Origin: an uncultured Clostridia bacterium
GTDB taxonomy: Bacteria > Bacillota > Peptococcia > Peptococcales > Peptococcaceae
Direction: 5' to 3'
Length of the DNA: 64,000 bases
Assembly (NCBI GenBank): GCA_944391625.1
Contig: CALXUG010000002.1
Coordinates: 102,168-166,167 of the forward strand
The notes under the pieces are model-generated. The model did not search any database and was not told the origin of the DNA. It was given only the letters and a program-made list of their open reading frames with translations. A program made the position numbers and the translations under genes. Shown piece by piece: positions 732-14,241 of this stretch. Numbering within the stretch: the stretch's first letter is position 1; every line of letters begins with the position of its first letter.

Positions 732-1307
732 TTAAGTAGTCGCTAATTGACAAAGAGAATAAATTTCCTGATTGATTTCATCTCGATAATATCTGTCTTG
801 AAAATCCTTTACAAAAAGATAGATATTATCCACATAATCATCTAATGTTTTACTAGGTTCTATTAATTTCTCATAAAGAACTTCTAATCCACCTAATACG
901 TAGTGCATAAATATCTTTTCACATTCTTTTTGCTTTTCTAAATCCCTATCATAACGAAATGCCCGATTAATTCTTTCTTCAATATCCAATGTTTCTCGAT
1001 CCTCTAATAACATGATCATTCTATAATTTAATTCAAGTTCTGGACGAACGCTATTAATTTGATCTAAAAACATTGTAACTTTATTTTCATTGCCTTCGCT
1101 ATCTTTCAAAGGTTCCAATTCCGCTTTTCTAGAAAAAATCTTTCCTACAACAGATGCCATTACTAATACATCTACTTGTCGATTAAAAATTCCCTGCTTC
1201 AAGTTTAAATCTGGTTTCGCGACTAACGCTTTCATATATTCAGAATGTTTTCCTGTTATTATTATATTTTTTTGAAATAGACCTTTTACTTCACTCATTT
1301 CATTCAT
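732..1307 (-). CDS. Uncharacterised last protein of the PT defence operon (191 aa)
   Basis: I do not recognise a domain. The protein is soluble, mostly charged and predicted helical, with no signal peptide, membrane segment or Cys/His cluster. A central SVRPELELNYRMIMLLEDRET stretch and a C-terminal acidic/aromatic stretch (YVDNIYLFVKDFQDRYYRDE) stand out. Its start overlaps the stop of the DndD-like gene by 4 bases (ATGA), a translational-coupling arrangement, so it is the last gene of the same operon. The context suggests an accessory subunit of the SMC-type ATPase/nuclease module, perhaps like the accompanying subunits of DndFGH- or SspFGH-type restriction complexes. That role is inference from position only. 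Confidence 0.6.
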   Translation of the reverse strand: MNEMSEVKGLFQKNIIITGKHSEYMKALVAKPDLNLKQGIFNRQVDVLVMASVVGKIFSRKAELEPLKDSEGNENKVTMFLDQINSVRPELELNYRMIMLLEDRETLDIEERINRAFRYDRDLEKQKECEKIFMHYVLGGLEVLYEKLIEPSKTLDDYVDNIYLFVKDFQDRYYRDEINQEIYSLCQLATT

Positions 1308-3319
1308 CTCTTTTCAATTATAGATTCTGTTTTTGTTTTAGCTTTTAAGAGCCATCTCTCCCCTATTTTATCTCCCATATGTTCTTTGGCAATATTTCCG
1401 TCCGTATCTTTAATAAAAATAATAATCTGGTCTGCAATTTGAGGGAGCGTGTCACAGATATTTTTTATTCTTTTCGTATCAAATGCAGAAAGAGGTGCAT
1501 CCATCACTAACGGATAGTGATTTGCCACATTTGACATATCCTCATCCATAAACTCTTCATAACTTTTGCTTTTTTCTTTTGCCAATTTTATGATGCCCGA
1601 AATAAATGCGAAAACAATCGCATAATTTTGTGCAGTATTTCGTTCTAGTTCATCACCAGATACTGCTGAAGTGTCTGTAACAATTACTTTTAGATTATAT
1701 TTTTCATCTACAGACAATTTTATTCCACCATCATAAATATCTACAAAAATTTGATTGATTGTATCTTCTAATTTATGCCGTGTCTGTTTTTCTCTCCTTT
1801 TAAAGTCATTATCAATAAGTTCAAAAACATATTTCGCATATTCTCGTAAAATAATGTTATCTTTATTCTTTTTATCGACCAAAATTAGTTTTTCTCTTTT
1901 ACTTTCTAGTAGAGCAATATCACGATCCGCTCGTTCTATTTTTACCTTTAAATCTACCACTTCGTCATTTATTCTTTTGTTCTCGTCTTTATAGAGTTGC
2001 AAGTCTTTCTTTAATTTATCGGAACGGCTCGTATCAGATAAAGATTCAAATAAATTATCCACAGCCTTACTTATTTTTTCAGTATCATTAATATTTTCGC
2101 GCACTAACCGGTAATGCGTTTCAATGGTGTCATAAAAATCTTCTCCCGCTTTAGTACGATTCCGGCAATTATCTGAGTACGCTCCAACCATTTGTCCTAC
2201 TGTTTTTGGTGGTACTTTATCCAACAATTCTGTCACTTTTTTCAATTCTTCAATATGGTCTTTATCTAAAGGGGTACCACAAATACAATATTTTCTATCT
2301 AATAAATATTGTATTGTATCCGCATGTAAAGCAGGAATTCCAGCATCTAAATCGCCTACATCCTTTAAAATCGATAAGCTATCTTTCACCAATGGTTGCG
2401 TATAAAAATCTGCTACTTTTTTTGAAAAGATACTAAATAATTTGTTGGTCGCATCCAACTTGGCGCTTTTCAAATTTTCTAATTTTTTCTGCATCTCATT
2501 ATACTTTTCACGTTGTTCTATTAATGGAGCCATTGCTAAAATCTCTTGCGTTGTTTTTGCTATTTTATCAACATAATGATTTGGCAAATTTTCTATCTCG
2601 TCCAGTCTTTTTTTAGTTGGTTCAAGATCCATTTCAATTTTCTGAATTTTAGTTGTATATTTTGCTAATTCTTGCTCCCCATGCGCATCAATTTCTTTAT
2701 TAATCTTACCTATAACGGTATTTGTGCCATTCGATGGCTTTAGATGATTGATCGCGGACATCATAGCCGTAAGCCCCACCAAATTCTTTACTGCATCAGC
2801 AAATTCTTTGCTTTTCCCTTTTTCTATTTCATCACTTAAATTTTGTATGCGTTCTCCATCAAAAAAGAAAAATCTAGATAGTTCCACAGGCAACATTCTT
2901 TTTATAAATCCTGCTTCTTCACCTTCATTTAAATAATCCCATTCTCCAGTTTGCACATTTTTTGAAGCAATCGAAAAAGAATCATCAACCCGCTTAAAAC
3001 TTGTTCGTTCTCTTAATATTCTCTGTCGTCTGCGAATCTGATATTCTTTTCCTTCTTGTTTAATATACAATTCTACTTTTACATCTGCCGTCTCATTTGG
3101 TTCTAATCCATCTCGCACATCACGATTAATCAATTCTTTTATTTTAAACTCTGTTTTTCCATACAATGCCCATTGGAACGCTTGCGCTAATGTAGTTTTG
3201 CCAGAACCATTGTCACCCATAATAATTGTAATATTCTTACTTTCATCGGTAGAAAATGTTATACTATGTTTTCCAGAGAACTGACGAAAGTTATACAGTT
3301 TAATCTCATTTATAAGCAT
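1304..3319 (-). CDS. DndD-like SMC/Rad50-family ATPase of the PT defence operon
   Basis: The 671-aa protein has an N-terminal P-loop (GDNGSGKTTLAQAFQWAL, about residues 35-52) preceded by the typical 'LYNFRQFSG' beta-strand entry. A long central coiled coil follows (about 200-500) with a CxC pair (YCICGTPLD) near its middle, like a reduced zinc hook. The C-terminal half has a signature-like SGDELERNTAQNYAIVF and a Walker B (YPLVMDAPLSAFD). This is the architecture of DndD/Rad50/SbcC ATPases that couple ATP hydrolysis to DNA nicking or remodelling. The start is supported by AAGGAGG 6 bases upstream. It overlaps the 60-aa gene by 14 bases and the 191-aa gene by 4. In PT systems, SMC-like proteins occur both in Dnd modification and in restriction modules; the position here, after SspE and a helicase, argues for restriction. 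Confidence 0.85.
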   Translation of the reverse strand: MLINEIKLYNFRQFSGKHSITFSTDESKNITIIMGDNGSGKTTLAQAFQWALYGKTEFKIKELINRDVRDGLEPNETADVKVELYIKQEGKEYQIRRRQRILRERTSFKRVDDSFSIASKNVQTGEWDYLNEGEEAGFIKRMLPVELSRFFFFDGERIQNLSDEIEKGKSKEFADAVKNLVGLTAMMSAINHLKPSNGTNTVIGKINKEIDAHGEQELAKYTTKIQKIEMDLEPTKKRLDEIENLPNHYVDKIAKTTQEILAMAPLIEQREKYNEMQKKLENLKSAKLDATNKLFSIFSKKVADFYTQPLVKDSLSILKDVGDLDAGIPALHADTIQYLLDRKYCICGTPLDKDHIEELKKVTELLDKVPPKTVGQMVGAYSDNCRNRTKAGEDFYDTIETHYRLVRENINDTEKISKAVDNLFESLSDTSRSDKLKKDLQLYKDENKRINDEVVDLKVKIERADRDIALLESKREKLILVDKKNKDNIILREYAKYVFELIDNDFKRREKQTRHKLEDTINQIFVDIYDGGIKLSVDEKYNLKVIVTDTSAVSGDELERNTAQNYAIVFAFISGIIKLAKEKSKSYEEFMDEDMSNVANHYPLVMDAPLSAFDTKRIKNICDTLPQIADQIIIFIKDTDGNIAKEHMGDKIGERWLLKAKTKTESIIEKR

Positions 3320-3488
3320 GGACAGCCTCCTTGATCGTTTTTAAATGTAGATTTACCATGTCCGCCCCATCTTTATCTTTCGTGCGTAAATTTACATTTT
3401 CATCAAAAAGTATTTTTGAAATAATTTGATTCGCTACTACCGTATCAATTTCAACACCATTTCTTACAATAATATTTTTTTCACTCAT
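3306..3488 (-). CDS. Small conserved-position protein (60 aa) of the PT defence operon
   Basis: A 60-aa acidic/basic soluble protein lies between the helicase and the DndD-like ATPase. It has no recognisable motif; the end (DMVNLHLKTIKEAVHAYK) looks helical. It is likely real: GGAGAG precedes the ATG, it starts 6 bases after the helicase stop, and it overlaps the next gene by 14 bases, so translation appears coupled on both sides. A bridging subunit between helicase and SMC ATPase would fit, but this is inference from position. Confidence 0.65.
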   Translation of the reverse strand: MSEKNIIVRNGVEIDTVVANQIISKILFDENVNLRTKDKDGADMVNLHLKTIKEAVHAYK

Positions 3489-3494
3489 TTAAAT

Positions 3495-5699
3495 TCACTC
3501 TCCATACAATTCCAACTCGGGTTCTTTATATAACTGATATATTTCAACTAGTTCATCTATTAGTTCATTTGAATCATAAGGATTTAAAGCTAATCTTTTA
3601 AATTCTAACACTCTATTTAGCTCATTAATAATCAATCGTTTTTCTTGTTCTATTTCATCTGCTGTGGCCTCTGGCATTTCTTCTAGTGTTCTAGGTAAAC
3701 AAACAAAATCATATATTTTCGCATATAATTTATTTGGAGCCAATCGCAATACACGACCACGCCTTTGGATGTATTCTTTTTTATTGGTACTACTAGCTAA
3801 AATAAACGCTGTTTTTACGCTAGGTATATTTACACCTTCATCTAAGCATTTAATCGCTATTAAAGCCTGTATATCCTTTTCCAAAAACATACGCTTTCGC
3901 CGTTCTCTTTCTAGGATATTTTCATTGGATGTATATTTCGCCACTTTCATGCCTAATTCATTGCCTAATCTTCTAGTCACTAGGTCTATTTGGCGAATTC
4001 CGATATCATCCGCTTCCCGTTCATCCGTTAACTGCGCAGCACCACAATAAATTAACATATTATCATCATCTTTGTACTCTTGCATTATTTCTATCAACCG
4101 TTCTACTTTCTCACTAGCACCCGCTATAATACGAGAACGCTTTATTGCTAACATTTCCCCTTTTTTACTTAGCTTTGTTTTTCCATTTTTACTCTTTGTA
4201 ATGCATCTTCCTATCTCACGGGTTAATTCTGTATAACTACCGCGTTCCTCTTCCGTTAACGCAATCACAATGGGATAATAATAGTATTCGGTTAACATTT
4301 TATCCCGAATAGCCTCTTCTAAAGTGTACTCAATTGCTTTCTTTCCAAAGAATTGATATAACCGTTCTGTACCTTCTTCATCATGATGTCGATCAAAAGT
4401 AGCCGATAAAGCAAGCCGATATTGATAGTTTCCACTTAGACATTTACTAATACTATCTGCTCCTGCATTATGCGCTTCGTCGATTACTAAAAGCATATCT
4501 TTTTCAACTTTACTTAGCTCACTTTGAATCGCTTTCGATGCAAATGTAGCATTCGTACAAATAAAGCAAAAATTTTTTATAACCTCTAGATTGTAATCTA
4601 AAATTTTATTTTTCAGTCTTTTTTTGTACTCCCTATCCTTACTCCCACTATAACCAATGATTGGATCTAATCCAAACGCCTCTATATCCTCTACCCATTG
4701 CTCTACTAGATGCTGATATGGTACCACAATAATGATTGCCAACTTATCATGCAAATGTTCAGCTAAACGAACAATTGCAGCCAAACCTGTAATTGTTTTC
4801 CCGGTTCCTGTAGCCATATCAAAAATACCACGAAACCCTGCTGTTTGCCAATTATCAATCGCTTTTATTTGATAATCTCTTAACTCTATACTGCTAGGTA
4901 AATGAATAGTCCCAACTTGATATTCTACTTCTCGTTCTGCCAAATAAGCGTCGAACCCCATAGTTAAATCATATCTTACTGATTTAGTGTTTTCTTTTCT
5001 ATACTTCTTTACAATTGCATCTTTTAGTTTAGGAAATTCATATACAAAAATATGTTCTTCACTATTATTCCACAACTTATCAAATGCCTTGATCTTATCC
5101 TCTACACGCTCTTTCGATTCACTCCAAGATGTATATACATCTATCGTTTCATAATTGGTTTTCATACCTGTTGCCGTTTCATTCATCGAGCCACTAAAAG
5201 CCACCGTATTCCCGTCTTTATCAGAAATAAGTCCTAACTTTTCATGATACATCCCAATACCAGTTGAATCAGACAACACTACAATTTTGATTTCTAAAAT
5301 ATTCAATGCAATTAAAGCCGCTAAATATGCCATACTTTTTTCTTCATATGGTTTTAATTCTTTTGCTTTGTCTAGTTCACGAAGTAAACACTTTTCGATT
5401 ATCTGTTCACGCTTTTCATATCCTTTATCAATCGCCTGTAAATCTTCTTCTGACAACTTAGGAGAAGCGATCAACTGAATTACGCCTTCATTTTTTACAA
5501 GTTGCTCTAATCCAATTGATATTTCCACTAAAGAAGATGATGAAAAAAAACCAACAGAACGCTTATAAGCTACAGCTTCTTTTAAGGCTGGAATATAGAA
5601 ATGTCTACAAATATCTGTTGATAAAGAACGGTACTCACGCTCAAACGTAATGTCTTGTAAACTCATCTCTGCATCATTCCCATCTAATTTCTTCAACAA
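3495..5699 (-). CDS. PLD-nuclease / DEAH superfamily-2 helicase of the PT defence operon
   Basis: The protein has 734 aa. The N-terminal part (about 30-220) is a phospholipase-D-like domain with an HxK signature at H152/K154 (HEKLGLI) followed by SGSMNET, as in PLDc_2 nucleases. The helicase core has Walker A ATGTGKT (about 296-302), DEAH (407-410), SAT, and motif VI QRRGRVLR. Such fusions occur in restriction and phage-defence systems, where they translocate on and cut DNA. The frame opens with TTG directly after the sspE stop; the ATG at codon 12 (MSLQDITF) is an alternative start and neither has a strong ribosome binding site. It probably forms the second restriction module with the next three genes, comparable to SspFGH, although I cannot match it to a particular letter. 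Confidence 0.85.
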   Translation of the reverse strand: MLKKLDGNDAEMSLQDITFEREYRSLSTDICRHFYIPALKEAVAYKRSVGFFSSSSLVEISIGLEQLVKNEGVIQLIASPKLSEEDLQAIDKGYEKREQIIEKCLLRELDKAKELKPYEEKSMAYLAALIALNILEIKIVVLSDSTGIGMYHEKLGLISDKDGNTVAFSGSMNETATGMKTNYETIDVYTSWSESKERVEDKIKAFDKLWNNSEEHIFVYEFPKLKDAIVKKYRKENTKSVRYDLTMGFDAYLAEREVEYQVGTIHLPSSIELRDYQIKAIDNWQTAGFRGIFDMATGTGKTITGLAAIVRLAEHLHDKLAIIIVVPYQHLVEQWVEDIEAFGLDPIIGYSGSKDREYKKRLKNKILDYNLEVIKNFCFICTNATFASKAIQSELSKVEKDMLLVIDEAHNAGADSISKCLSGNYQYRLALSATFDRHHDEEGTERLYQFFGKKAIEYTLEEAIRDKMLTEYYYYPIVIALTEEERGSYTELTREIGRCITKSKNGKTKLSKKGEMLAIKRSRIIAGASEKVERLIEIMQEYKDDDNMLIYCGAAQLTDEREADDIGIRQIDLVTRRLGNELGMKVAKYTSNENILERERRKRMFLEKDIQALIAIKCLDEGVNIPSVKTAFILASSTNKKEYIQRRGRVLRLAPNKLYAKIYDFVCLPRTLEEMPEATADEIEQEKRLIINELNRVLEFKRLALNPYDSNELIDELVEIYQLYKEPELELYGE

Positions 5700-7949
5700 T
5701 TAAACTCTTATTACTGTATCATCTTTTGCTTTCAATAAAATAGCTAAAAAATACTTTTGCAGACGTTTTTTCCTTTCAGTAAAAAACTTTTCATTAGGAA
5801 CCCGAATCCCATCTACAAGTGTACTGTAGTTGTCGTCCTCTAACATTGTTGCAATTTCTTCAACCAACCAATGTTTACCGAGGCTCCCTGATGCCCTATA
5901 ATTCGTTAAAGCTTCATATAGCGGTCTATTATCTTTGTCATTGTTATTTTTCCCGTCTAACAACATAAAATTTCCTAAAGAATTCACAAAACTATCACGA
6001 CTGGCATTTTCATCCTCAGGCTTAAAATAATACCTCTTCGATAGATCAACATTAGAAATACTATTCGGTTCTAAATGATCTAATTGTATTGTCTTGGTAT
6101 TACTAAAGACAGAAACTGTCGCTGTATATTTTAATGCATCATCTGTTTTATCGGTTTTTAACAAATCCAGGAACAATAATTTTATTTTTAAATCATTACT
6201 CCCTTTATACTGCCACTTTTCTGTCCAGTTTGAGTATTGGTCTTTTAACGCTGATAGTTCTGTTGTGGTTATTTCTAACAAACTCAAGTGATTTTCTCTT
6301 ACGTTCACTTTTTCTATTATTTTTTTTGCCATTTCGCGTGGAGTATGATAATCATTGGAAAGTAACACAACAACCCAAAGGTTATATGCCGTTTTATGAA
6401 TATTTTTAAATTCCTCCACATTTTCATTGTCTTTGTCTTTTAATTTTTCAACAAAAGATTTGAACTCTTCAATATCTATATCGCTCTTTCCTTTTTTCAT
6501 CTGCTTATCTATAAAAGTTTTAACGATAAAATTCGTGATGATTGGCATAACGCCAATCAGTTCTAATGCATTAAGTAAATGCATCGTTTTACACGTAATC
6601 GATTTAACCTCTTGGCATTCAACACTAATAGCTTTTTCAGCTTTTTTTTGATACGCTAACTCAAAACTGTCTGTGATAATTTTTATCATTTGAAAAATTC
6701 TAAAGTCATTTATTACATTTTGTCTGGTATATTTTTTTTCTTGATAAAATTTATTAAAATATTGTTTTTCAATAACTTCCCTATATTTTTCTGTTTTTTT
6801 GGTAACTACGCTTTCATCGGCAGTTAAATATATTGTGCCCAAATAAGCAATCAACTTTGTTTGCGTAGTTCCTATATCCGCAAATGTTTCATTAACCCAA
6901 ATATTGTCCAAAATTTCAATGGTTTTATCAATTTCTTTTTCCGTTTCTTTTGATAACAAACAATATTTCTTAAAGAATAAATTTTTAATTAAATCCAAAT
7001 CATCAACTTGTAATGATCTATCATTTAACACTTCAAATAGCGTATACGCATCCCGCTCATTGCCTGTTACGATAACACAAAATTGAATATTCTCTAACAT
7101 GACGTCTATCAAATCTATCATTTTTGCGCACGTTTTCATTGAGTTTTTTTCATTAATTGCACTCTCCAGCAAAATATCAAACTCACATTTCAACGCATTG
7201 ATATACTGTTCAACCGTGCTATCCTCTAAACACTCGTCATCAACTACTCTCAGCTCAGGTCCTTCCGCATTCGTCATTCTTATCCAAACATTCGCCATCG
7301 CAGTTTTTAATTTATCATTATAGGTCTTTCTGCTATACCGTAATGCCAGTTCTTCATCTTCAAAAAAATCCTTTAATTCAGCACCATAGGCTTTTTTATA
7401 AGCTTTTTCATCATTGAAATTTTTCACTGGCAGATATAATTTTTCATGATAAACTTCCAATATGTTTTCCCATAGTTCATCTTTTTCTTCATCATCAGCT
7501 TCTTCAATCTCTTCTAGGGATTTTTCAATTGCCACAGACAACTCTTTCTTTATCCCTAGCAGTTTAGATGCTTTTTCCAAGTTTTTAAACGTGCTTTCTA
7601 TTTTAGAACCTTTTTTCGATAATAATAATTCTTCTACATAGGCTCTCAGTAACAAAAATTTTAAATAATTTAACAGAAAAATCGTCGTAACTCTTTGTTG
7701 ACCATCAATAATATCATGGCAATTTTCTTTTACTACAGTTACTACCGAACCTACAAAATACTCTGCTGAAGCATCCTCTGTTTCTTTATTCTTTTTAAAA
7801 TCTTTGAATAAATTTGTAATTTGGTCATTACCCCATTTATATGGGCGTTGATAGTGTGGAATATTTACACTTAATCTCGTCTCTTTGGTGCCATTAATTT
7901 CCTGACATAAACTGTAAATATTTCGTATTTGTGCACCTTTTAAATCCAT
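5700..7949 (-). CDS. sspE: SspE-like PT-sensing NTPase/nickase (DUF262 + DUF1524)
   Basis: The 749-aa protein has the DUF262 ParB-like NTPase fold at its N-terminus: IPHYQRPYKW (about 30-39) and DGQQRVTT (82-89). A long helical middle follows, then a C-terminal DUF1524 His-Me (HNH) nuclease with the conserved DHLEP histidine and the NSLGNFMLL...N pattern. This domain pair is found in SspE, which uses the phosphorothioate state of DNA to stimulate NTPase activity and nicks invading DNA, and in GmrSD type IV enzymes that cut glucosylated cytosine DNA. The immediate SspD-SspB-SspC neighbours favour SspE. It lies 37 bases after sspC and abuts the helicase gene. Not provable here: whether the residues of the PT-sensing pocket are kept. 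Confidence 0.8.
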   Translation of the reverse strand: MDLKGAQIRNIYSLCQEINGTKETRLSVNIPHYQRPYKWGNDQITNLFKDFKKNKETEDASAEYFVGSVVTVVKENCHDIIDGQQRVTTIFLLNYLKFLLLRAYVEELLLSKKGSKIESTFKNLEKASKLLGIKKELSVAIEKSLEEIEEADDEEKDELWENILEVYHEKLYLPVKNFNDEKAYKKAYGAELKDFFEDEELALRYSRKTYNDKLKTAMANVWIRMTNAEGPELRVVDDECLEDSTVEQYINALKCEFDILLESAINEKNSMKTCAKMIDLIDVMLENIQFCVIVTGNERDAYTLFEVLNDRSLQVDDLDLIKNLFFKKYCLLSKETEKEIDKTIEILDNIWVNETFADIGTTQTKLIAYLGTIYLTADESVVTKKTEKYREVIEKQYFNKFYQEKKYTRQNVINDFRIFQMIKIITDSFELAYQKKAEKAISVECQEVKSITCKTMHLLNALELIGVMPIITNFIVKTFIDKQMKKGKSDIDIEEFKSFVEKLKDKDNENVEEFKNIHKTAYNLWVVVLLSNDYHTPREMAKKIIEKVNVRENHLSLLEITTTELSALKDQYSNWTEKWQYKGSNDLKIKLLFLDLLKTDKTDDALKYTATVSVFSNTKTIQLDHLEPNSISNVDLSKRYYFKPEDENASRDSFVNSLGNFMLLDGKNNNDKDNRPLYEALTNYRASGSLGKHWLVEEIATMLEDDNYSTLVDGIRVPNEKFFTERKKRLQKYFLAILLKAKDDTVIRV

Positions 7950-7986
7950 CTCTACATCAACTCCTACTACGTCTAAACTACATCTA

Positions 7987-10900
7987 TTACAATTTCTTCA
8001 ACAATTCAGTTAATACTGTTCTTTTTTCCCGATTTGATACAGCCTCTCCGTAATCATCCTCTAGTAAACTTTGCAAATCCTTCAATAACATCTGCCCACT
8101 ATGGGATAACTCCACTATGGAACCGTCTGCTAAGCTATCTTGCCCAGCGTTTGAAGATACCTCTTCTGTTTGTTCAACTACTTGTTTTAAATCTTTTAAC
8201 GCATCTTTAAACATCAACACATGTTCATTTTTCCAATCCGCTACACGCAAACCAACAATCTGTTTGCCTAGCTGCTGAATCATCTCATACTCCGTAGCAT
8301 CTTGCTGTAATATGTTTATCATGCGTTCTTGCTGATTGGTTAGTGTTGCTGCTGCAATTTTATCTTGGTTCAAGTTCCACCAATCTTCCAATACCGACTG
8401 GAATGACATCTCCCAATTATACTCTTTAACAAAAAATTCTTCTTGGAAACTACATAACATTCCCTCTATTAAATTGCGATACACCCTATCAAATTGATAT
8501 TTCGTGTCCGCAATCTGTTGAATAATCGTTGTTTCCAGATCATCCGTTGAAAATATAGTTGGTAACGATTCAAACAAAAATTTCTTTACACCTAATTCTG
8601 GATTGCGTAACAATTCAACAAAACGCAACATTTCCGTTGTGTATGGCACAAATTTATGATTTTCTACATCAAAATAGAATGTCATGTTTTTTGTTACTTT
8701 CGGTAAACTCAAGAACCAGCGTTGTACCGCTTTTGCAACATATGAAAATCCATTAAATTCTTTTTCTTTTGTCTCAATAAATTCAGCAAATATATCTTCT
8801 AATTGTTCTATATATTGTTGCTTTTCTTCACTCCAGCTCTCTAGTGATACCGTATAGGCTTTCGGATTTTCATTGACATTTACTAAGAGTTCAGCTGAAA
8901 GTTCCACTTCCTTACCATCTTTTTCGATTATAATCTGCGTTTTCTGGCTATGTAACACAGCTGCTAACAAAACAGGTATTACACCTTTTTTCAAACCAAT
9001 ATGATATTCTGGTAATATCAGTTGATTATATAATAATTCGAAGTTTTGTCCTTTTTGTTGGCCTGCTCGCCGTAAAAAATTTTGAATCGTATTAAACACA
9101 TATTGCAAATTTTCATTTGCTAAACCGTATGTGCGAACCATTAGGCCATTTTCAGTTTCTTCTAAAACACCTGTATTTACTAATAAGACACGGGTCAATG
9201 ATACTTCTGGACCATTACCTGTCAAACCTAACATGGGATCTAAAAATGATTCTAACAAACCCGTTACAATTTTATTTCTAGCAGATATGATTGATTTTTC
9301 AATCATATCTTTATTAATCATTTCGTTATTAATGATCGGCGTTTTATAATAACTGTCCTCACAAATCTTACTCAGTAAATTTGTAAACTGTGTTTTTCGA
9401 TAAACCTCTTGTCGTTTTCCATGATAGTAATAGTCTGCTTTTAATTGCTCGGGCATCGTGTACTGGAAGAAATAATTCCTCAGTACAGTTTCTAAGTCTT
9501 CTTGCTGAAATAGCAATTCTTCTAAATCAGCTATATCATTCTTACACTGTTCTTTTAATGTTAGAATTGCTTGATAACGATAGCTAACAGCAACAATATC
9601 TTGATAATCTTTTAAAAGAATGAAGATTTTTCTATCTTTCTGTACCGTTTTTTCTAAAAGATGCTGTTTAATATCCTTTATGGTATCTTCCCGTTCCGGA
9701 ATAATACCATAAATCATTCCATCCAAATTGTCATCTAACAGAGTATCTTCATATAGAGCATACTCTGTTATAAATACAAATTTAAAATAACGTGTCACCG
9801 CATAATCTTCATTATAGCGAGTTGGATAAAAATAGTTTTCTAACATTGCATGATTTAAAATATCTGTTAACGCATATTTGACTTTTATTTTTTCAACTGT
9901 ATCAGAAATCATCCGGTCGACATCATGTTGGGAACCACTTTTCAATTCTAAAAAACCGTTGTTCTCTCTTTGATACAACAAATGTATTTCTTTCACTAGT
10001 TCTCGCAAAGTTTCTGCGATTTCAACATTAGAATAACCCGCATGACTATACACTAAAGACAAGGTTTCATCGTTTGATGGAATTACGTCAGGCTCATTAC
10101 AAATCAAAAGCAATGCTATTGTTTTTATTGCTTTTTCATGCAACGAACCTTTTTTTACTTTTTTTAACGCTGCTGCCGTCGTTATATATATCTTATGAAT
10201 TTCTGTCTGATAGGCTTCTTTTTTAAATTGCTGTTCAAAATAATCATAGATATAATCTGGTGTTAACAACTGAAATCCGTTAAACTGAGTTTCTAAAAAT
10301 TCTTTTAATGTATTTTTTTGATTTGAAGCTAAAAATGTAAATAATGTCCTTTCATTTTGTGCTACTTTTTCAGAAATGCGCGGTAATAAAAATACCGTAA
10401 CGGGATGTAACGGATAGCAAACATCAATTAAGTGCTCCACTTGAACATAAGAATAATATGGAAACAAATTTTTTGCGTGAACCATATTAGTCAAATTTAA
10501 AAATTCATTTGCATATTGTTGCTTCAGATTTTCATAATAGTTTTTCTCTTTCTGAATGACAGTTCCTATCAGCTCATAAGTTTGTTCTACATTACCATTC
10601 ATTTCCAAATATTCAAAACGTTCTGCTATTCCCCGCCAACCATCTGTTTTTTCTTTTGGTAACAAATCAATATAATTATGGATATCTTTATGGGTTATCA
10701 ATAATAAATGCATTTGTTTATGTCCACTACGTGTACATTTTTCAGCAAAATCTTGCAGTAACTTAATATCTACAATAGAGGCTTCTTTTATGTTAGCCTC
10801 CAAATATTTACTAAACTCATCATAAATCACATAGATTCCCATATAGCCAAAATCAGTTAACTTTTCAATTACACTACTATATAATTCAACAATATCAAAG

Positions 10901-11559
10901 CCCAAAAAAGGATTAAATTCGCTACCAGCTGTAAGTAATGGATACATTGCAACAAATTTTTTATAAGCATCTTCTTCAAAATTATCTAGCTTTGCACAGT
11001 ATTCATTCATGGGCTCCGCAACTAATTGATTGAATTGTTTATAGGTTTCTGGATATTCTTTCTTCCACTTTTCAATCATATTAAGAGCAGCTGTAAAATG
11101 AGTTTCAGGCATAATACTTGCTAAATTTTCTCTCTGCAATGCTTCTTGTAATGCTGCCAAAAATGACTGACTAATACTTACGCTATTTCCTGAAATAATA
11201 ACAGGTAATAATCGTTGCTGATTTGTAATATAATCTATAAGATATTCATACAATACCATATCATGTTGCTTTATCTGACTAAGCAAACTGCTGCAGCTTT
11301 TGCTACTTCCACTGCATAATAAAGTAAGCAATACTAATATTAAATGAGATTTCCCTCGACCATATGCCCCAATTAAAATATTAGCTCGATTTGTAACACC
11401 ATTTGCGGTACTCCAAACTAATTTTCCTAATAAATCCAAGGAATCAGATGATGCAATATAATCTTGAACTTTTGCTTCATCACCATAATCATAACGAATA
11501 TTAACTGATTTTTGAAAAGCCTCTTTTAGTAGAATATTCCCCATATATTTTTCACTCAT
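7987..11559 (-). CDS. sspC: SspC-like large P-loop ATPase of PT modification
   Basis: A protein of about 1190 aa has a Walker A (GAYGRGKSH, around residues 64-72 from this start) and a Walker B (IYVIYDEFSKYLEA, around 242-255), followed by more than 900 residues of helical sequence with no other recognised domain. Large ATPases of this kind sit between DUF4007 and PAPS-reductase genes in ssp modification cassettes, where the ATPase is needed for single-stranded phosphorothioation. I chose the ATG at 11559 because GGTGGAG precedes it with 6-base spacing; a GTG four codons upstream is the alternative. It overlaps the sspB stop by 8 bases. BREX-type PglY/BrxC ATPases are similar in size, but none of the other BREX genes is present. 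Confidence 0.75.
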   Translation of the reverse strand: MSEKYMGNILLKEAFQKSVNIRYDYGDEAKVQDYIASSDSLDLLGKLVWSTANGVTNRANILIGAYGRGKSHLILVLLTLLCSGSSKSCSSLLSQIKQHDMVLYEYLIDYITNQQRLLPVIISGNSVSISQSFLAALQEALQRENLASIMPETHFTAALNMIEKWKKEYPETYKQFNQLVAEPMNEYCAKLDNFEEDAYKKFVAMYPLLTAGSEFNPFLGFDIVELYSSVIEKLTDFGYMGIYVIYDEFSKYLEANIKEASIVDIKLLQDFAEKCTRSGHKQMHLLLITHKDIHNYIDLLPKEKTDGWRGIAERFEYLEMNGNVEQTYELIGTVIQKEKNYYENLKQQYANEFLNLTNMVHAKNLFPYYSYVQVEHLIDVCYPLHPVTVFLLPRISEKVAQNERTLFTFLASNQKNTLKEFLETQFNGFQLLTPDYIYDYFEQQFKKEAYQTEIHKIYITTAAALKKVKKGSLHEKAIKTIALLLICNEPDVIPSNDETLSLVYSHAGYSNVEIAETLRELVKEIHLLYQRENNGFLELKSGSQHDVDRMISDTVEKIKVKYALTDILNHAMLENYFYPTRYNEDYAVTRYFKFVFITEYALYEDTLLDDNLDGMIYGIIPEREDTIKDIKQHLLEKTVQKDRKIFILLKDYQDIVAVSYRYQAILTLKEQCKNDIADLEELLFQQEDLETVLRNYFFQYTMPEQLKADYYYHGKRQEVYRKTQFTNLLSKICEDSYYKTPIINNEMINKDMIEKSIISARNKIVTGLLESFLDPMLGLTGNGPEVSLTRVLLVNTGVLEETENGLMVRTYGLANENLQYVFNTIQNFLRRAGQQKGQNFELLYNQLILPEYHIGLKKGVIPVLLAAVLHSQKTQIIIEKDGKEVELSAELLVNVNENPKAYTVSLESWSEEKQQYIEQLEDIFAEFIETKEKEFNGFSYVAKAVQRWFLSLPKVTKNMTFYFDVENHKFVPYTTEMLRFVELLRNPELGVKKFLFESLPTIFSTDDLETTIIQQIADTKYQFDRVYRNLIEGMLCSFQEEFFVKEYNWEMSFQSVLEDWWNLNQDKIAAATLTNQQERMINILQQDATEYEMIQQLGKQIVGLRVADWKNEHVLMFKDALKDLKQVVEQTEEVSSNAGQDSLADGSIVELSHSGQMLLKDLQSLLEDDYGEAVSNREKRTVLTELLKKL

Positions 11560-12472
11560 TCCATTCTCCACCTACATTATTTATGGCTCTATAATATTGT
11601 TCTACACTTTCTAAGAACGTCCATTTTGTTTTCACTTTCACTACATCCAGCCCCGCTGTTCTAACTACAGAAATATGTCCTAACCGTTCAATTTTATTCA
11701 ATAACTCTAGCAATGAAATCATATCAAGGTTGAATATTTTGCCTAAACTATTTTTTTCTTTTAACAATGTCTGTATTTTTATTTCTGCATTATCTGCTTG
11801 CGCCACAATAATAGCTAAAGCAATTAACGGATGTATGCTCGCCTTCGGTGGTATTACCTTCGTATATATTCTATCTTTTTTATTCTTTATATCTAATAAA
11901 TTCAATTCACCTAACGGGCAGTCGATATTATTTTCTGGATCTACTTTTTTAGGATTGGACTTAGCTCTAGCAATATAAGTATTAACCAAACAATCAAAGT
12001 CACCTTCTAAAGAACTATCAGCTACTTCTTGTTTTGAATTAATACTTATAAATTTCTTCAACGCTAAACAAAAATCATCTTTTGTAAATTCCTGCATCTG
12101 AAATTCGTTAAAAAAGAAATACCAACTTGTTGCATCTGTAATATTTTTTGCTAAATTATAATGAAGCAACCATAATGTCCCTAATTCTTCAAAATACGGG
12201 TCATTTTCATAAATTACTTTACCTAATTCAGTTATAATCTGCTCGCGTTTTCCATTTTTTTCCCCTCTTATCTCAGTTGTCAAACCTACAACCTGCAACC
12301 AATATCGCAAAGATTTTACCATATTAGTGCCAATACCCAATACATCTGTAGGTAATTTATCTTTATTCACAAAAAGTGTTGCATCATTCAATACATTTTT
12401 TATACCTTTACGTAACCAACCCTTGCGTATAAAAAAAGTTTCATGTCCACGAAACTTCATTTTTTCAATCAT
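11552..12472 (-). CDS. sspB: SspB-like DUF4007 protein (PT-system nickase)
   Basis: The 306-aa protein opens with the DUF4007 signature GHETFFIRKGWLRKG (about 9-23) and the LGIGTNMVKSLRYW motif (about 45-58). A middle helical domain follows, then a winged-helix-like C-terminus (LLELLNKIERLGHISVVRTAG). DUF4007 proteins in ssp cassettes are reported as DNA nickases that open one strand for sulfur insertion. AGAGG lies 7 bases before the ATG. The gene is 44 bases downstream of sspD and overlaps sspC, so it is within the operon. The exact biochemical role is known-family inference; no catalytic residues can be pinpointed by eye. Confidence 0.8.
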   Translation of the reverse strand: MIEKMKFRGHETFFIRKGWLRKGIKNVLNDATLFVNKDKLPTDVLGIGTNMVKSLRYWLQVVGLTTEIRGEKNGKREQIITELGKVIYENDPYFEELGTLWLLHYNLAKNITDATSWYFFFNEFQMQEFTKDDFCLALKKFISINSKQEVADSSLEGDFDCLVNTYIARAKSNPKKVDPENNIDCPLGELNLLDIKNKKDRIYTKVIPPKASIHPLIALAIIVAQADNAEIKIQTLLKEKNSLGKIFNLDMISLLELLNKIERLGHISVVRTAGLDVVKVKTKWTFLESVEQYYRAINNVGGEWNE

Positions 12473-12516
12473 CTTTCATCCTCTTTTTCTACTTAATTTT
12501 ATCTATCATTCTTAAT

Positions 12517-14241
12517 TTACCCTTTGATGTATAAGTACTTATGCATCAAACAACCACCGGTTAAATATTTATCTGTAACACACATCTGACAGTGTGTACA
12601 TTTGTTCGGATCAATACGATACACGCCACCTTTTAAAGAGATAGCACCAAATTTACATAATGATTCACACTTCAAACAACCACGACAAGCATTATATTTT
12701 CTAATTTGGTAACCAAACATACGAAAATAGGCTTCACGTTCTGTTTTCTTACTACAATGCAATAAATCTATTTGAACCGCATACGGATAACTTTCTAACT
12801 CAACTGGCCGCACTGCTATAATTGGTTCTCTTGTTTTTACATCTAATAATATCGTTTCACTACCATCAGCTTGACTGTAATCATCAGAAATAATTCCTAA
12901 CGGACACAACAGCCCAATAAACTCTAAACTAAACGGTTTCTTCAAACGATAAATTCTACTATTTTTATTTTTTGGATCTATTTGATATACAATTCTAATA
13001 TCATCTGATGCAGGAACACCATTTCCACCTTGCCTAGCTTTCCACTTACCCTCATCTACATAAACTTCCGGATCAGGTTTCCCTATCATTTTTGCAAACT
13101 CTAATAAAAAATTTCTCCATATTTGATACTGTTCTGGCATATAGACACTTGACAAAAATTGTGACCGTGCAGAATTATTAGGACAACACCAACAGCCAAC
13201 ACGATCATACCCCAAACGGTACGCATCATTAAAATCCACATCTTCACCTAATAAATATAACCAAACATCAGCATCTATCCAATCAATAATAGGTGCAGCA
13301 ACTGTTTGTTTTTGTATTTTCACTGATTCTGCACGGTTCTCTACCCGATTATATTTGCTACGTGCCGTTGACTCTGAATGCCGTATACCATAGAATGTTA
13401 AAATCTGTTGATTTGCAAATAAAGTATCCAACACTCTTGCTAGTGGACCGGTTTTAAACATAAAACAACAAAACCGCAACATTCTTGCTGGCGGTCCAAT
13501 TTCCTTGCAAACTTCATAGAAATCTTTTTCTTTATTTTTGGCTATTTTAAAAATTGATTTAGGATTATTTTTCCGATATCGCTTTGCATATTCCATCGTC
13601 AAGGGAAATTCTAATGTTGTATCACTAAAAATATGCAGTATGCTAGGATTAGCCAATGCCTTTATCGTCAAATCTGCAACTACGGTAGAATCCTTCCCAC
13701 CAGAAAACGAAATAACAATGTTTTCATTTGGAAATTTTTTTGCTTCTTGCCGGATAAAATCAGATGCCTCATTCACAATAAAATCTAATCTATTTTTATT
13801 CGCTTGAATAAACCGTTTTACATAAAAAATAAATGAATTATTTTCATTTTGTTCTCGATAAAATTCTAATTGTTCTCTCACATCTTCTGGCATCAGTTTC
13901 TTATAATGCTCTTTGGTCAATAAAATGGATTTTCCATCTATATAATATCGATTTGTAGAACACCATACAGATTGATGTTGGTATGCTAATGGTCTTCCTA
14001 ACAAAATTTCAAGTAACAATCTTTCTTCTGGAAAAACAGGACGAATATCTGTTGTCATTAATGAAACTTTTCCACCACACAATGGGCAACTATCTAAATC
14101 TATTTCATCAGCATATCTAACAACTGGAACTTTACACTCTGAACACCAATATACATCAGATGGGGCAATTAGATCTGTTTTTTCACCACAAATATCACAA
14201 TATTCTCCATAAGCTTTTTTTCCACAATTTGAACACCACAT
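12517..14241 (-). CDS. sspD: SspD/DndC-like PAPS-reductase-family sulfurtransferase with zinc ribbons and ferredoxin tail
   Basis: The 574-aa protein starts with two zinc-ribbon modules (CxxC at 3/6, 15/18, 33/36, 52/55). It then has an adenine-nucleotide alpha-hydrolase PP-loop, SGGKDSTVVADL (180-191), typical of ATP pyrophosphatases such as DndC and SspD. Cys-rich FCCFMFKTGP and GCWCCPNN segments probably hold an Fe-S cluster, as in DndC. From about 516 to the end is a ferredoxin-like region (Cys 519, 522, 525, 529 and 548, 551, 554, 564). It would activate the DNA backbone or transfer sulfur to it during phosphorothioation. It is the first gene of the operon; AAGGTGGTG lies upstream of the ATG. 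A generic phosphoadenosine phosphosulfate reductase is the alternative label, but the context argues against sulfate assimilation. Confidence 0.85.
   Translation of the reverse strand: MWCSNCGKKAYGEYCDICGEKTDLIAPSDVYWCSECKVPVVRYADEIDLDSCPLCGGKVSLMTTDIRPVFPEERLLLEILLGRPLAYQHQSVWCSTNRYYIDGKSILLTKEHYKKLMPEDVREQLEFYREQNENNSFIFYVKRFIQANKNRLDFIVNEASDFIRQEAKKFPNENIVISFSGGKDSTVVADLTIKALANPSILHIFSDTTLEFPLTMEYAKRYRKNNPKSIFKIAKNKEKDFYEVCKEIGPPARMLRFCCFMFKTGPLARVLDTLFANQQILTFYGIRHSESTARSKYNRVENRAESVKIQKQTVAAPIIDWIDADVWLYLLGEDVDFNDAYRLGYDRVGCWCCPNNSARSQFLSSVYMPEQYQIWRNFLLEFAKMIGKPDPEVYVDEGKWKARQGGNGVPASDDIRIVYQIDPKNKNSRIYRLKKPFSLEFIGLLCPLGIISDDYSQADGSETILLDVKTREPIIAVRPVELESYPYAVQIDLLHCSKKTEREAYFRMFGYQIRKYNACRGCLKCESLCKFGAISLKGGVYRIDPNKCTHCQMCVTDKYLTGGCLMHKYLYIKG

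What the first reader, a model, noticed from the sequence alone, without database searches (positions are those of the whole stretch)
732..14241. Ssp-type phosphorothioate defence operon with two stacked effector modules and no SspA
Seen: an eight-gene, tightly overlapping minus-strand operon encoding a PAPS-reductase/PP-loop protein, DUF4007, a 1190-aa P-loop ATPase, a DUF262+DUF1524 protein, a PLD-DEAH helicase, a 60-aa protein, a DndD-like SMC ATPase and a 191-aa protein. Known: SspBCD makes single-stranded PT marks; SspE and SspFGH are alternative partners reported to be compatible with one SspABCD module. Inferred: this locus carries both an SspE and an SspFGH-like module in one transcript, and must borrow sulfur from a housekeeping cysteine desulfurase.
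Basis: partly seen in the sequence, partly recalled or inferred. Interest (0 to 1): 0.8.

Follow-up and report, generated by a model that had tools for sequence, protein, structure and literature searches.

The report
SspBCD-PbeABCD DNA-sulfur defence operon lacking SspA
An anaerobe-type bacterium carries one operon that joins a DNA-sulfur marking kit (SspBCD) to a DNA-restriction kit known only with other marking systems (PbeABCD); this pairing is common and ordered across many bacteria but unreported in the papers searched, and here the usual sulfur-supplying gene is gone from the operon and no substitute is visible in the genome.

Summary
The eight-gene minus-strand operon (732-14241) is real. 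The modification half is SspD-SspB-SspC, with SspD in the long, BrxP-like, ferredoxin-tailed form. The second half is not SspFGH. It is a complete PbeABCD cassette: HKD nuclease-helicase PbeA (PADLOC E 8.5e-242), 60-aa PbeB, CxC-type ABC ATPase PbeC, and PbeD (TIGR04062-related, DndE-like). A DUF262-DUF1524 nuclease lies between the halves and is closer to DndI than to SspE by PDB sequence search. Of 80 PbeA relatives fetched, 49 carry SspD-B-C-A-PbeA-B-C-D in that order and 13 truncated loci agree. In an even sample of 399 genomes of the phylum, 12 of 24 PbeA loci lie within about 10 kb of a DUF4007/SspB gene (14 genomes hold both; 1.9 expected). The two cassettes each co-evolve internally but are nearly uncoupled from each other. 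No held paper describes the pairing. The missing SspA is confirmed: 51 of 51 comparable loci have one. The proposed housekeeping substitute is not found: the 96%-complete genome and 4 of 5 near-complete family members show no cysteine desulfurase, although MnmA and an SmsCB-like pair are present. Sulfide-fed phosphorothioation is an open, testable possibility.

The parts
12517..14241 (-). SspD, long form (574 aa): N-terminal Cys pairs (zinc-ribbon-like), PP-loop SGGKDS at residues 180-185 (PAPS reductase domain), C-terminal ferredoxin-like Cys-rich region; closest PADLOC model is BrxP of type-4 BREX
   Evidence: PAPS_reduct 1.6e-31; PADLOC BrxP 5.1e-78, SspD 7.9e-13; long SspD relatives in 51 loci
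11552..12472 (-). SspB (306 aa), DUF4007, predicted DNA-binding/nicking component
   Evidence: DUF4007 8.9e-86; SspB model 7.8e-63; PDB 6juf SspB 7.3e-23
7987..11571 (-). SspC (1194 aa), ATPase related to BrxC, Walker A GAYGRGKS at residue 68
   Evidence: SspC model 4.2e-118, BrxC 1.1e-45
5700..7949 (-). DUF262-DUF1524 (GmrSD-type) nuclease, 749 aa, with YQR at residue 33, DGQQR at 82, LDH at 623 and LGN at 658; DndI/SspE-like accessory effector that occupies the slot next to where sspA normally lies
   Evidence: GmrSD_N 4.9e-28, GmrSD_C 7.1e-6; PDB 9jfl (DndI) 7.2e-11; PADLOC HEC-06 3.3e-31, Orf5 5.7e-27, SspE 1e-15
3495..5699 (-). PbeA (734 aa), HKD/PLD nuclease + SF2 helicase; invariant H152, K154, G170-S171, N173; DEAH at 407
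   Evidence: PADLOC PbeA 8.5e-242; TIGR04095 504 bits (curated cut-off 600); PLDc_2 7.1e-6
3306..3488 (-). PbeB (60 aa), small partner protein; shares the E-x-x-N-x-x-T-K ... M-V pattern with relatives
   Evidence: similar to PbeB of L060, L069, L073, L078, L108, L119 (35-41%); a small ORF in this slot in 74 of 74 loci
1304..3319 (-). PbeC (671 aa), CxC-type ABC ATPase, Walker A GDNGSGKT at residue 35, C-I-C at residue 345
   Evidence: PADLOC PbeC 4e-95; CxC in 74 of 74 relatives
732..1307 (-). PbeD (191 aa), DndE-like; TIGR04062-related
   Evidence: TIGR04062 4.3e-5 (below cut-off); model pLDDT 90.5, top two PDB fold matches are DndE (weak, E 0.45 and 1.1)

Best explanation
This is a phosphorothioate-based anti-phage operon made of two portable cassettes: a modification cassette (SspD-SspB-SspC) and a restriction cassette (PbeA-PbeB-PbeC-PbeD), with a DndI/SspE-type DUF262-HNH nuclease inserted between them. 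Most likely SspD activates backbone phosphate through its PP-loop and inserts sulfur at sites chosen and nicked by SspB with the SspC ATPase (inferred from characterised Ssp homologues). PbeC and PbeD scan DNA, and the PbeA nuclease-helicase blocks replication of, or cuts, DNA without the mark (inferred from PbeABCD of Haloterrigena and from the HKD motif). The DUF262-HNH protein is a second effector that reads the mark or another DNA modification (inferred). Shown here: gene content, intact catalytic motifs, a recurrent ordered linkage of the two cassettes, co-evolution within but not between cassettes, and the absence of sspA from an operon type that otherwise always has it. The sulfur source is unknown.
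For: Profile identities. The PbeABCD gene order and sizes match the founding description (PLD-helicase, 66 aa, AAA_23, 152 aa) and a Dnd-linked yardstick, Ruegeria pTHAF33_d. 49 of 80 loci have SspD-B-C-A-PbeA-C-D in this order and 13 truncated ones agree; a PbeB-like ORF is present in 74 of 74. Even phylum sample: 24 PbeA genomes and 31 DUF4007 genomes among 399, 14 shared against 1.9 expected, hypergeometric P 1.4e-11, 12 within about 10 kb. Distance correlations are 0.90-0.95 within SspA-D, 0.76-0.84 within Pbe and 0.07-0.18 between, in 49 loci. Missing sspA: 51 of 51 comparable loci have one.
Against: No phosphorothioate measurement exists for this organism. Neither sspA nor any cysteine desulfurase was found, so the modification half may be unfed. 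The weak between-cassette correlation could be read as loose association, although the order is fixed. PbeD's link to DndE is weak (Foldseek E 0.45). SspD resembles BrxP more than short SspD.
Confidence: 0.78

Rival explanations
1. As read in stage one: SspBCD with SspE plus an SspFGH-like module, fed by a housekeeping IscS.
For: SspB and SspC models match strongly and SspD weakly; the DUF262-DUF1524 architecture is that of SspE.
Against: The last four genes are PbeABCD by profile, order and size. No FtsK/HerA domain. The DUF262 protein matches DndI rather than SspE in PDB. No IscS/SufS/NifS found.
Confidence: 0.05
2. A decaying operon: sspA was lost in this lineage, phosphorothioation is off, and the Pbe and GmrSD parts are idle or act without the mark.
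For: sspA is the only expected gene missing, and no other cysteine desulfurase is seen.
Against: All eight ORFs are full length with intact motifs and tight junctions. MnmA, another PP-loop sulfur-transfer enzyme, is present without a desulfurase, so sulfur transfer may work without one.
Confidence: 0.2
3. A type-4 BREX variant: the PAPS reductase, DUF4007 and BrxC-like ATPase form BREX rather than Ssp.
For: SspD matches the BrxP model best (5.1e-78); SspB and SspC are homologues of BREX-4 parts (PMC12839542).
Against: No PglZ and no BrxL among the operon genes or the flanking and larger window ORFs tested; the ATPase prefers SspC to BrxC models (4e-118 against 1e-45).
Confidence: 0.05

Closest known systems
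DndCDEA-PbeABCD (Haloterrigena jeotgali A29; PMC6459918) and Dnd-linked PbeABCD such as Ruegeria pTHAF33_d
   Same: The same four-gene PbeABCD cassette in the same order, next to a phosphorothioate-making cassette
   Different: The marking cassette here is SspBCD, not Dnd; an additional DUF262-HNH nuclease lies between; no desulfurase gene
SspABCD-SspE and SspABCD-SspFGH (PMC8092258; PMC9646914)
   Same: SspB, SspC and SspD modification core; a DUF262-DUF1524 effector is also present
   Different: The restriction partner is PbeABCD instead of SspFGH; the DUF262 protein is nearer to DndI by sequence; SspD is the long ferredoxin-tailed form; sspA missing
IscS-DndBCDE-DndI (PMC11662687)
   Same: A DUF262-HNH effector beside another restriction module in one phosphorothioate locus
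   Different: Ssp marking core and Pbe module instead of Dnd core and DndFGH
Type-4 BREX, BrxPCZL (PMC12839542; PMC11931770)
   Same: Long PAPS reductase with 4Fe-4S region, DUF4007, BrxC-like ATPase
   Different: No PglZ or BrxL; a Pbe cassette instead
CxC ABC-ATPase-DndE systems (Rakesh et al. 2024, PMC10853773)
   Same: HKD-SF2 helicase, small protein, CxC ATPase and DndE cognate; a stated mix-and-match with modification modules
   Different: That text describes coupling to Dnd or methylases; Ssp coupling is not mentioned

Membership tests
PbeABCD | PbeA: PLD/HKD domain fused to SF2 helicase | tested here: met
   PADLOC PbeA 8.5e-242; TIGR04095 504 bits against a cut-off of 600; invariant HxK and GSxN residues
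PbeABCD | PbeB: small protein of about 60 aa between PbeA and PbeC | tested here: met
   60 aa, homologous to relatives; such an ORF in 74 of 74 loci
PbeABCD | PbeC: CxC-type ABC ATPase | tested here: met
   PADLOC PbeC 4e-95; CIC at residue 345; CxC in 74 of 74
PbeABCD | PbeD: DndE cognate (TIGR04062) | tested here: inconclusive
   TIGR04062 4.3e-5 but below cut-off; top fold matches DndE at E 0.45-1.1; 24-41% identity to 55 PbeD relatives in the same slot
SspBCD modification core | SspB (DUF4007) | tested here: met
   8.9e-86; PDB SspB 6juf 7.3e-23
SspBCD modification core | SspC ATPase | tested here: met
   SspC model 4.2e-118
SspBCD modification core | SspD PP-loop sulfurtransferase | tested here: met
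   PAPS_reduct 1.6e-31, SGGKDS; long BrxP-like form
SspABCD | Cysteine desulfurase SspA or an IscS substitute | tested here: not met
   None in the operon; none recognised among the 5 PF00266 hits of the genome
SspABCD | Single-stranded phosphorothioate, for example at CCA | not testable with these tools
   Needs LC-MS/MS or SMRT data
SspE | DUF262 with DGQQR and C-terminal DUF1524 HNH | tested here: met
   GmrSD_N 4.9e-28, GmrSD_C 7.1e-6, DGQQR at 82
SspE | Closer to SspE than to other DUF262 nucleases | tested here: not met
   HEC-06 3.3e-31 and Orf5 5.7e-27 beat SspE 1e-15; only PDB hit is DndI
SspE | Phosphorothioate-stimulated GTPase | not testable with these tools
   Biochemistry needed
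SspFGH | Three-gene module with an FtsK/SpoIIIE-like SspH | tested here: not met
   No FtsK/HerA domain in any operon protein
Type-4 BREX | PglZ and BrxL | tested here: not met
   No match among the operon, flanking and larger window ORFs tested
Dnd | DndC and DndD above their curated cut-offs | tested here: not met
   TIGR03183 38 bits (cut-off 290); TIGR03185 109 bits (cut-off 246)

The most novel reading that the evidence does not exclude
DNA phosphorothioation without any cysteine desulfurase: in a host lineage that appears to run on inorganic sulfide (SmsCB-like Fe-S assembly, solitary NifU, MnmA but no IscS/SufS/NifS), the operon has dispensed with SspA, and the ferredoxin-tailed SspD takes sulfur directly from sulfide to mark DNA for a PbeABCD restriction module.
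Probability: 0.3. Interest if true: 0.8.

Novelty: new variant of a known kind. Interest (0 to 1): 0.62.

Why it matters
Two published gaps meet here. About 84% of sspBCD loci were reported without a known restriction partner (PMC8092258), and 58% of PbeAC pairs without dndCD nearby (PMC6459918). A recurrent, ordered SspABCD-PbeABCD pairing would fill part of both, at least in this phylum, where half of the sampled PbeA loci sit beside SspB. Because the two cassettes do not co-evolve, it can be tested directly whether PbeABCD reads the sulfur mark regardless of sequence motif, or whether the motif is the same throughout. If sulfide can feed SspD, the accepted need for a cysteine desulfurase in DNA phosphorothioation falls.

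Tried and rejected
SspFGH identity of the second module: rejected by profile, gene order and lack of an FtsK domain. Type-4 BREX: rejected, no PglZ/BrxL found. A housekeeping desulfurase as sulfur donor: looked for and not found; the best PF00266 hit is beside serA and reads as serC. A shared origin of the window DUF262-HNH protein with the DUF262 nucleases of other composites (L036, L042, L063, L069, L073, L094, L095, L109, L119): none at E up to 10 by phmmer, so it was acquired separately or has diverged beyond recognition. Its relatives elsewhere: none in plasmids or phages at 1e-8; in 399 genomes one half-length relative, not beside Ssp or Pbe genes, and three weak N-terminal matches. A viral carrier: only two weak loci in viral contigs. 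Promoter and terminator scans do not exceed shuffles; no Rfam match; no tRNA in the window. Host taxonomy could not be named.

Full report
OBSERVATION. G+C over the operon is 0.32-0.34, while most of 16-56 kb is 0.42-0.49 and holds housekeeping genes such as those for IF-2 and PNPase. The operon is therefore probably a chromosomal acquisition.

WHAT THE GENES ARE. SspD (12517-14241) has a PAPS-reductase PP-loop domain (1.6e-31) with SGGKDS at residue 180, N-terminal Cys pairs and a C-terminal ferredoxin-like region; its best PADLOC model is BrxP (5.1e-78), far ahead of short SspD (7.9e-13). Rakesh and Krishnan 2026 note that a subset of SspD share this BrxP arrangement (PMC12839542). SspB (11552-12472) is DUF4007 (8.9e-86) and finds solved SspB, 6juf, at 7.3e-23. 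SspC (7987-11571) matches SspC models at 4.2e-118. The protein at 5700-7949 has GmrSD_N and GmrSD_C domains, DGQQR and the DUF1524 motifs, as in SspE and DndI; its only PDB sequence hit is DndI 9jfl (7.2e-11), and HEC-06 and Orf5 models beat SspE.

THE SECOND MODULE IS PbeABCD. PbeA (8.5e-242) and PbeC (4e-95) are unambiguous. The founding PbeABCD locus reads PLD-helicase, 66-aa protein, AAA_23 ATPase, 152-aa protein (PMC6459918), and a plasmid yardstick in Ruegeria shows dndBCDE, a desulfurase and then the same four genes with the last annotated 'DNA phosphorothioation-associated protein 4'. The window has 734, 60, 671 and 191 aa in that order; the last gives TIGR04062 at 4.3e-5, and its confident model (pLDDT 90.5) finds DndE as its top two, though weak, fold matches (E 0.45 and 1.1). 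PbeC has the CxC motif (residue 345), as do all 74 relatives checked, and all 74 loci have a small PbeB-like ORF in the slot. SspFGH is excluded: it was described as sharing nothing with annotated genes beyond a Walker A motif and an FtsK-like tail, and that tail is absent here.

THE PAIRING IS RECURRENT. Two gut contigs filed as phage carry SspD-SspB-SspC-desulfurase-PbeA-B-C-D. Of the 80 best PbeA loci in genome contigs, 49 have SspD-B-C-A-PbeA-C-D in this order, 13 truncated loci agree, and others are rearranged or have a 270-300 aa ORF in the place of the long SspD. Hosts named in the records include clostridial and oscillospiral MAGs, Selenomonas, Mitsuokella, Faecalibacterium, Fusobacterium, Treponema and a Methanobrevibacter MAG. 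That set was chosen by similarity to PbeA, so I also took an even draw of 399 genomes of the phylum: 24 hold PbeA, 31 hold DUF4007, 14 hold both against 1.9 expected (P 1.4e-11), and 12 of these lie within about 10 kb. Reading the neighbourhoods confirms adjacent Ssp genes in 11 loci besides the window and Dnd genes in two.

TWO CASSETTES. In 49 loci with all seven large genes, pairwise-distance correlations are 0.90-0.95 among SspA, B, C and D, 0.76-0.84 among PbeA, C and D, and 0.07-0.18 between the groups. Selecting loci by PbeA similarity compresses the PbeA range, but PbeA-PbeC still reach 0.84 in the same loci, so the low between-group values are not only a range effect. The modules are exchanged as units while the order is kept. 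Xiong et al. reported a similar figure, 0.107, for DndCD against PbeAC.

MISSING SspA AND THE SULFUR QUESTION. All 51 loci with long SspD, SspB, SspC and PbeA carry an SspA-type desulfurase; the window has only 37 bases between sspC and the DUF262 gene. In some selenomonads a DUF262 nuclease lies between sspA and pbeA (L073, L109, L119), so loss of sspA from such a layout is a simple route, although the window nuclease shows no detectable homology to those. A PF00266 search of the genome (96.2% complete) gives five hits, none of which I read as a cysteine desulfurase: a serC beside serA, an aminotransferase, an Orn/Lys-type decarboxylase, a glycine dehydrogenase subunit and a Cys/Met-metabolism enzyme (the assignments are my reading of the sequences). 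At E up to 1e-55, 1 of 6 family genomes of at least 90% completeness has a match, and 3 of 13 overall; the weaker hit in the complete G012 also reads as serC. The genome has a solitary NifU, an ABC ATPase plus SufB-like pair resembling SmsCB, and MnmA. SmsCB of M. jannaschii uses sulfide and that genome lacks a desulfurase (PMC12192291); H2S replaces IscS in anaerobic E. coli (PMC13015791). That SspD here is fed by sulfide is inference.

LITERATURE AND NOVELTY. Searches for papers with both Pbe and Ssp terms returned nothing that describes the pairing, and the text of the two most relevant surveys that I read in part or searched does not mention it. Subscription papers and supplementary tables were not searchable, so the pairing could be listed there. 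I file it as a new variant of a known kind.

Noticed in passing
G000 and family f1 genomes (G001-G012): No IscS/SufS/NifS-type cysteine desulfurase is visible in the 96%-complete window genome or in most family members, though NifU and MnmA are present and the window genome has an SmsCB-like pair. A desulfurase-free bacterial family would be of interest by itself.
   Followed up: partly
L042:14883-15971, L049:14905-15993 and similar ORFs directly downstream of PbeD in other loci: A family of 31 similar ORFs of about 360 aa follows PbeD in relatives; the two tested have sigma-70 regions 2 and 4 and a weak region 1.1 match, and one matches the PADLOC MzaA model. The window lacks it. It may be a dedicated sigma factor for the system.
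   Followed up: partly
L036 (MT835506.1) and L037 (MT835493.1): Two records filed as 'Bacteriophage sp.' carry complete SspD-B-C-A-PbeABCD operons; L036 or L037 genes are 93-100% identical over the Ssp genes, PbeC and PbeD to a goat-caecum Clostridia MAG (L110), so these may be bacterial contigs filed as phage.
   Followed up: partly
L044, L054, L061, L065, L071, L078, L084: A DGQHR (DndB-type) gene, confirmed as DndB by Pfam in L061 (9.5e-26), lies downstream of several Ssp-Pbe composites, often after a 170-190 aa protein with no Pfam match in the one tested.
   Followed up: partly
L043, L058, L059, L093, L112, L199, L212: A second Ssp-Pbe layout: SspB and SspC with a 255-300 aa ORF in the place of long SspD, and no SspA seen nearby.
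   Followed up: no
L224:9918-11000: A 360-aa ORF that matches only the C-terminal half (residues 395-749) of the window DUF262-HNH protein, without Ssp or Pbe genes nearby.
   Followed up: no
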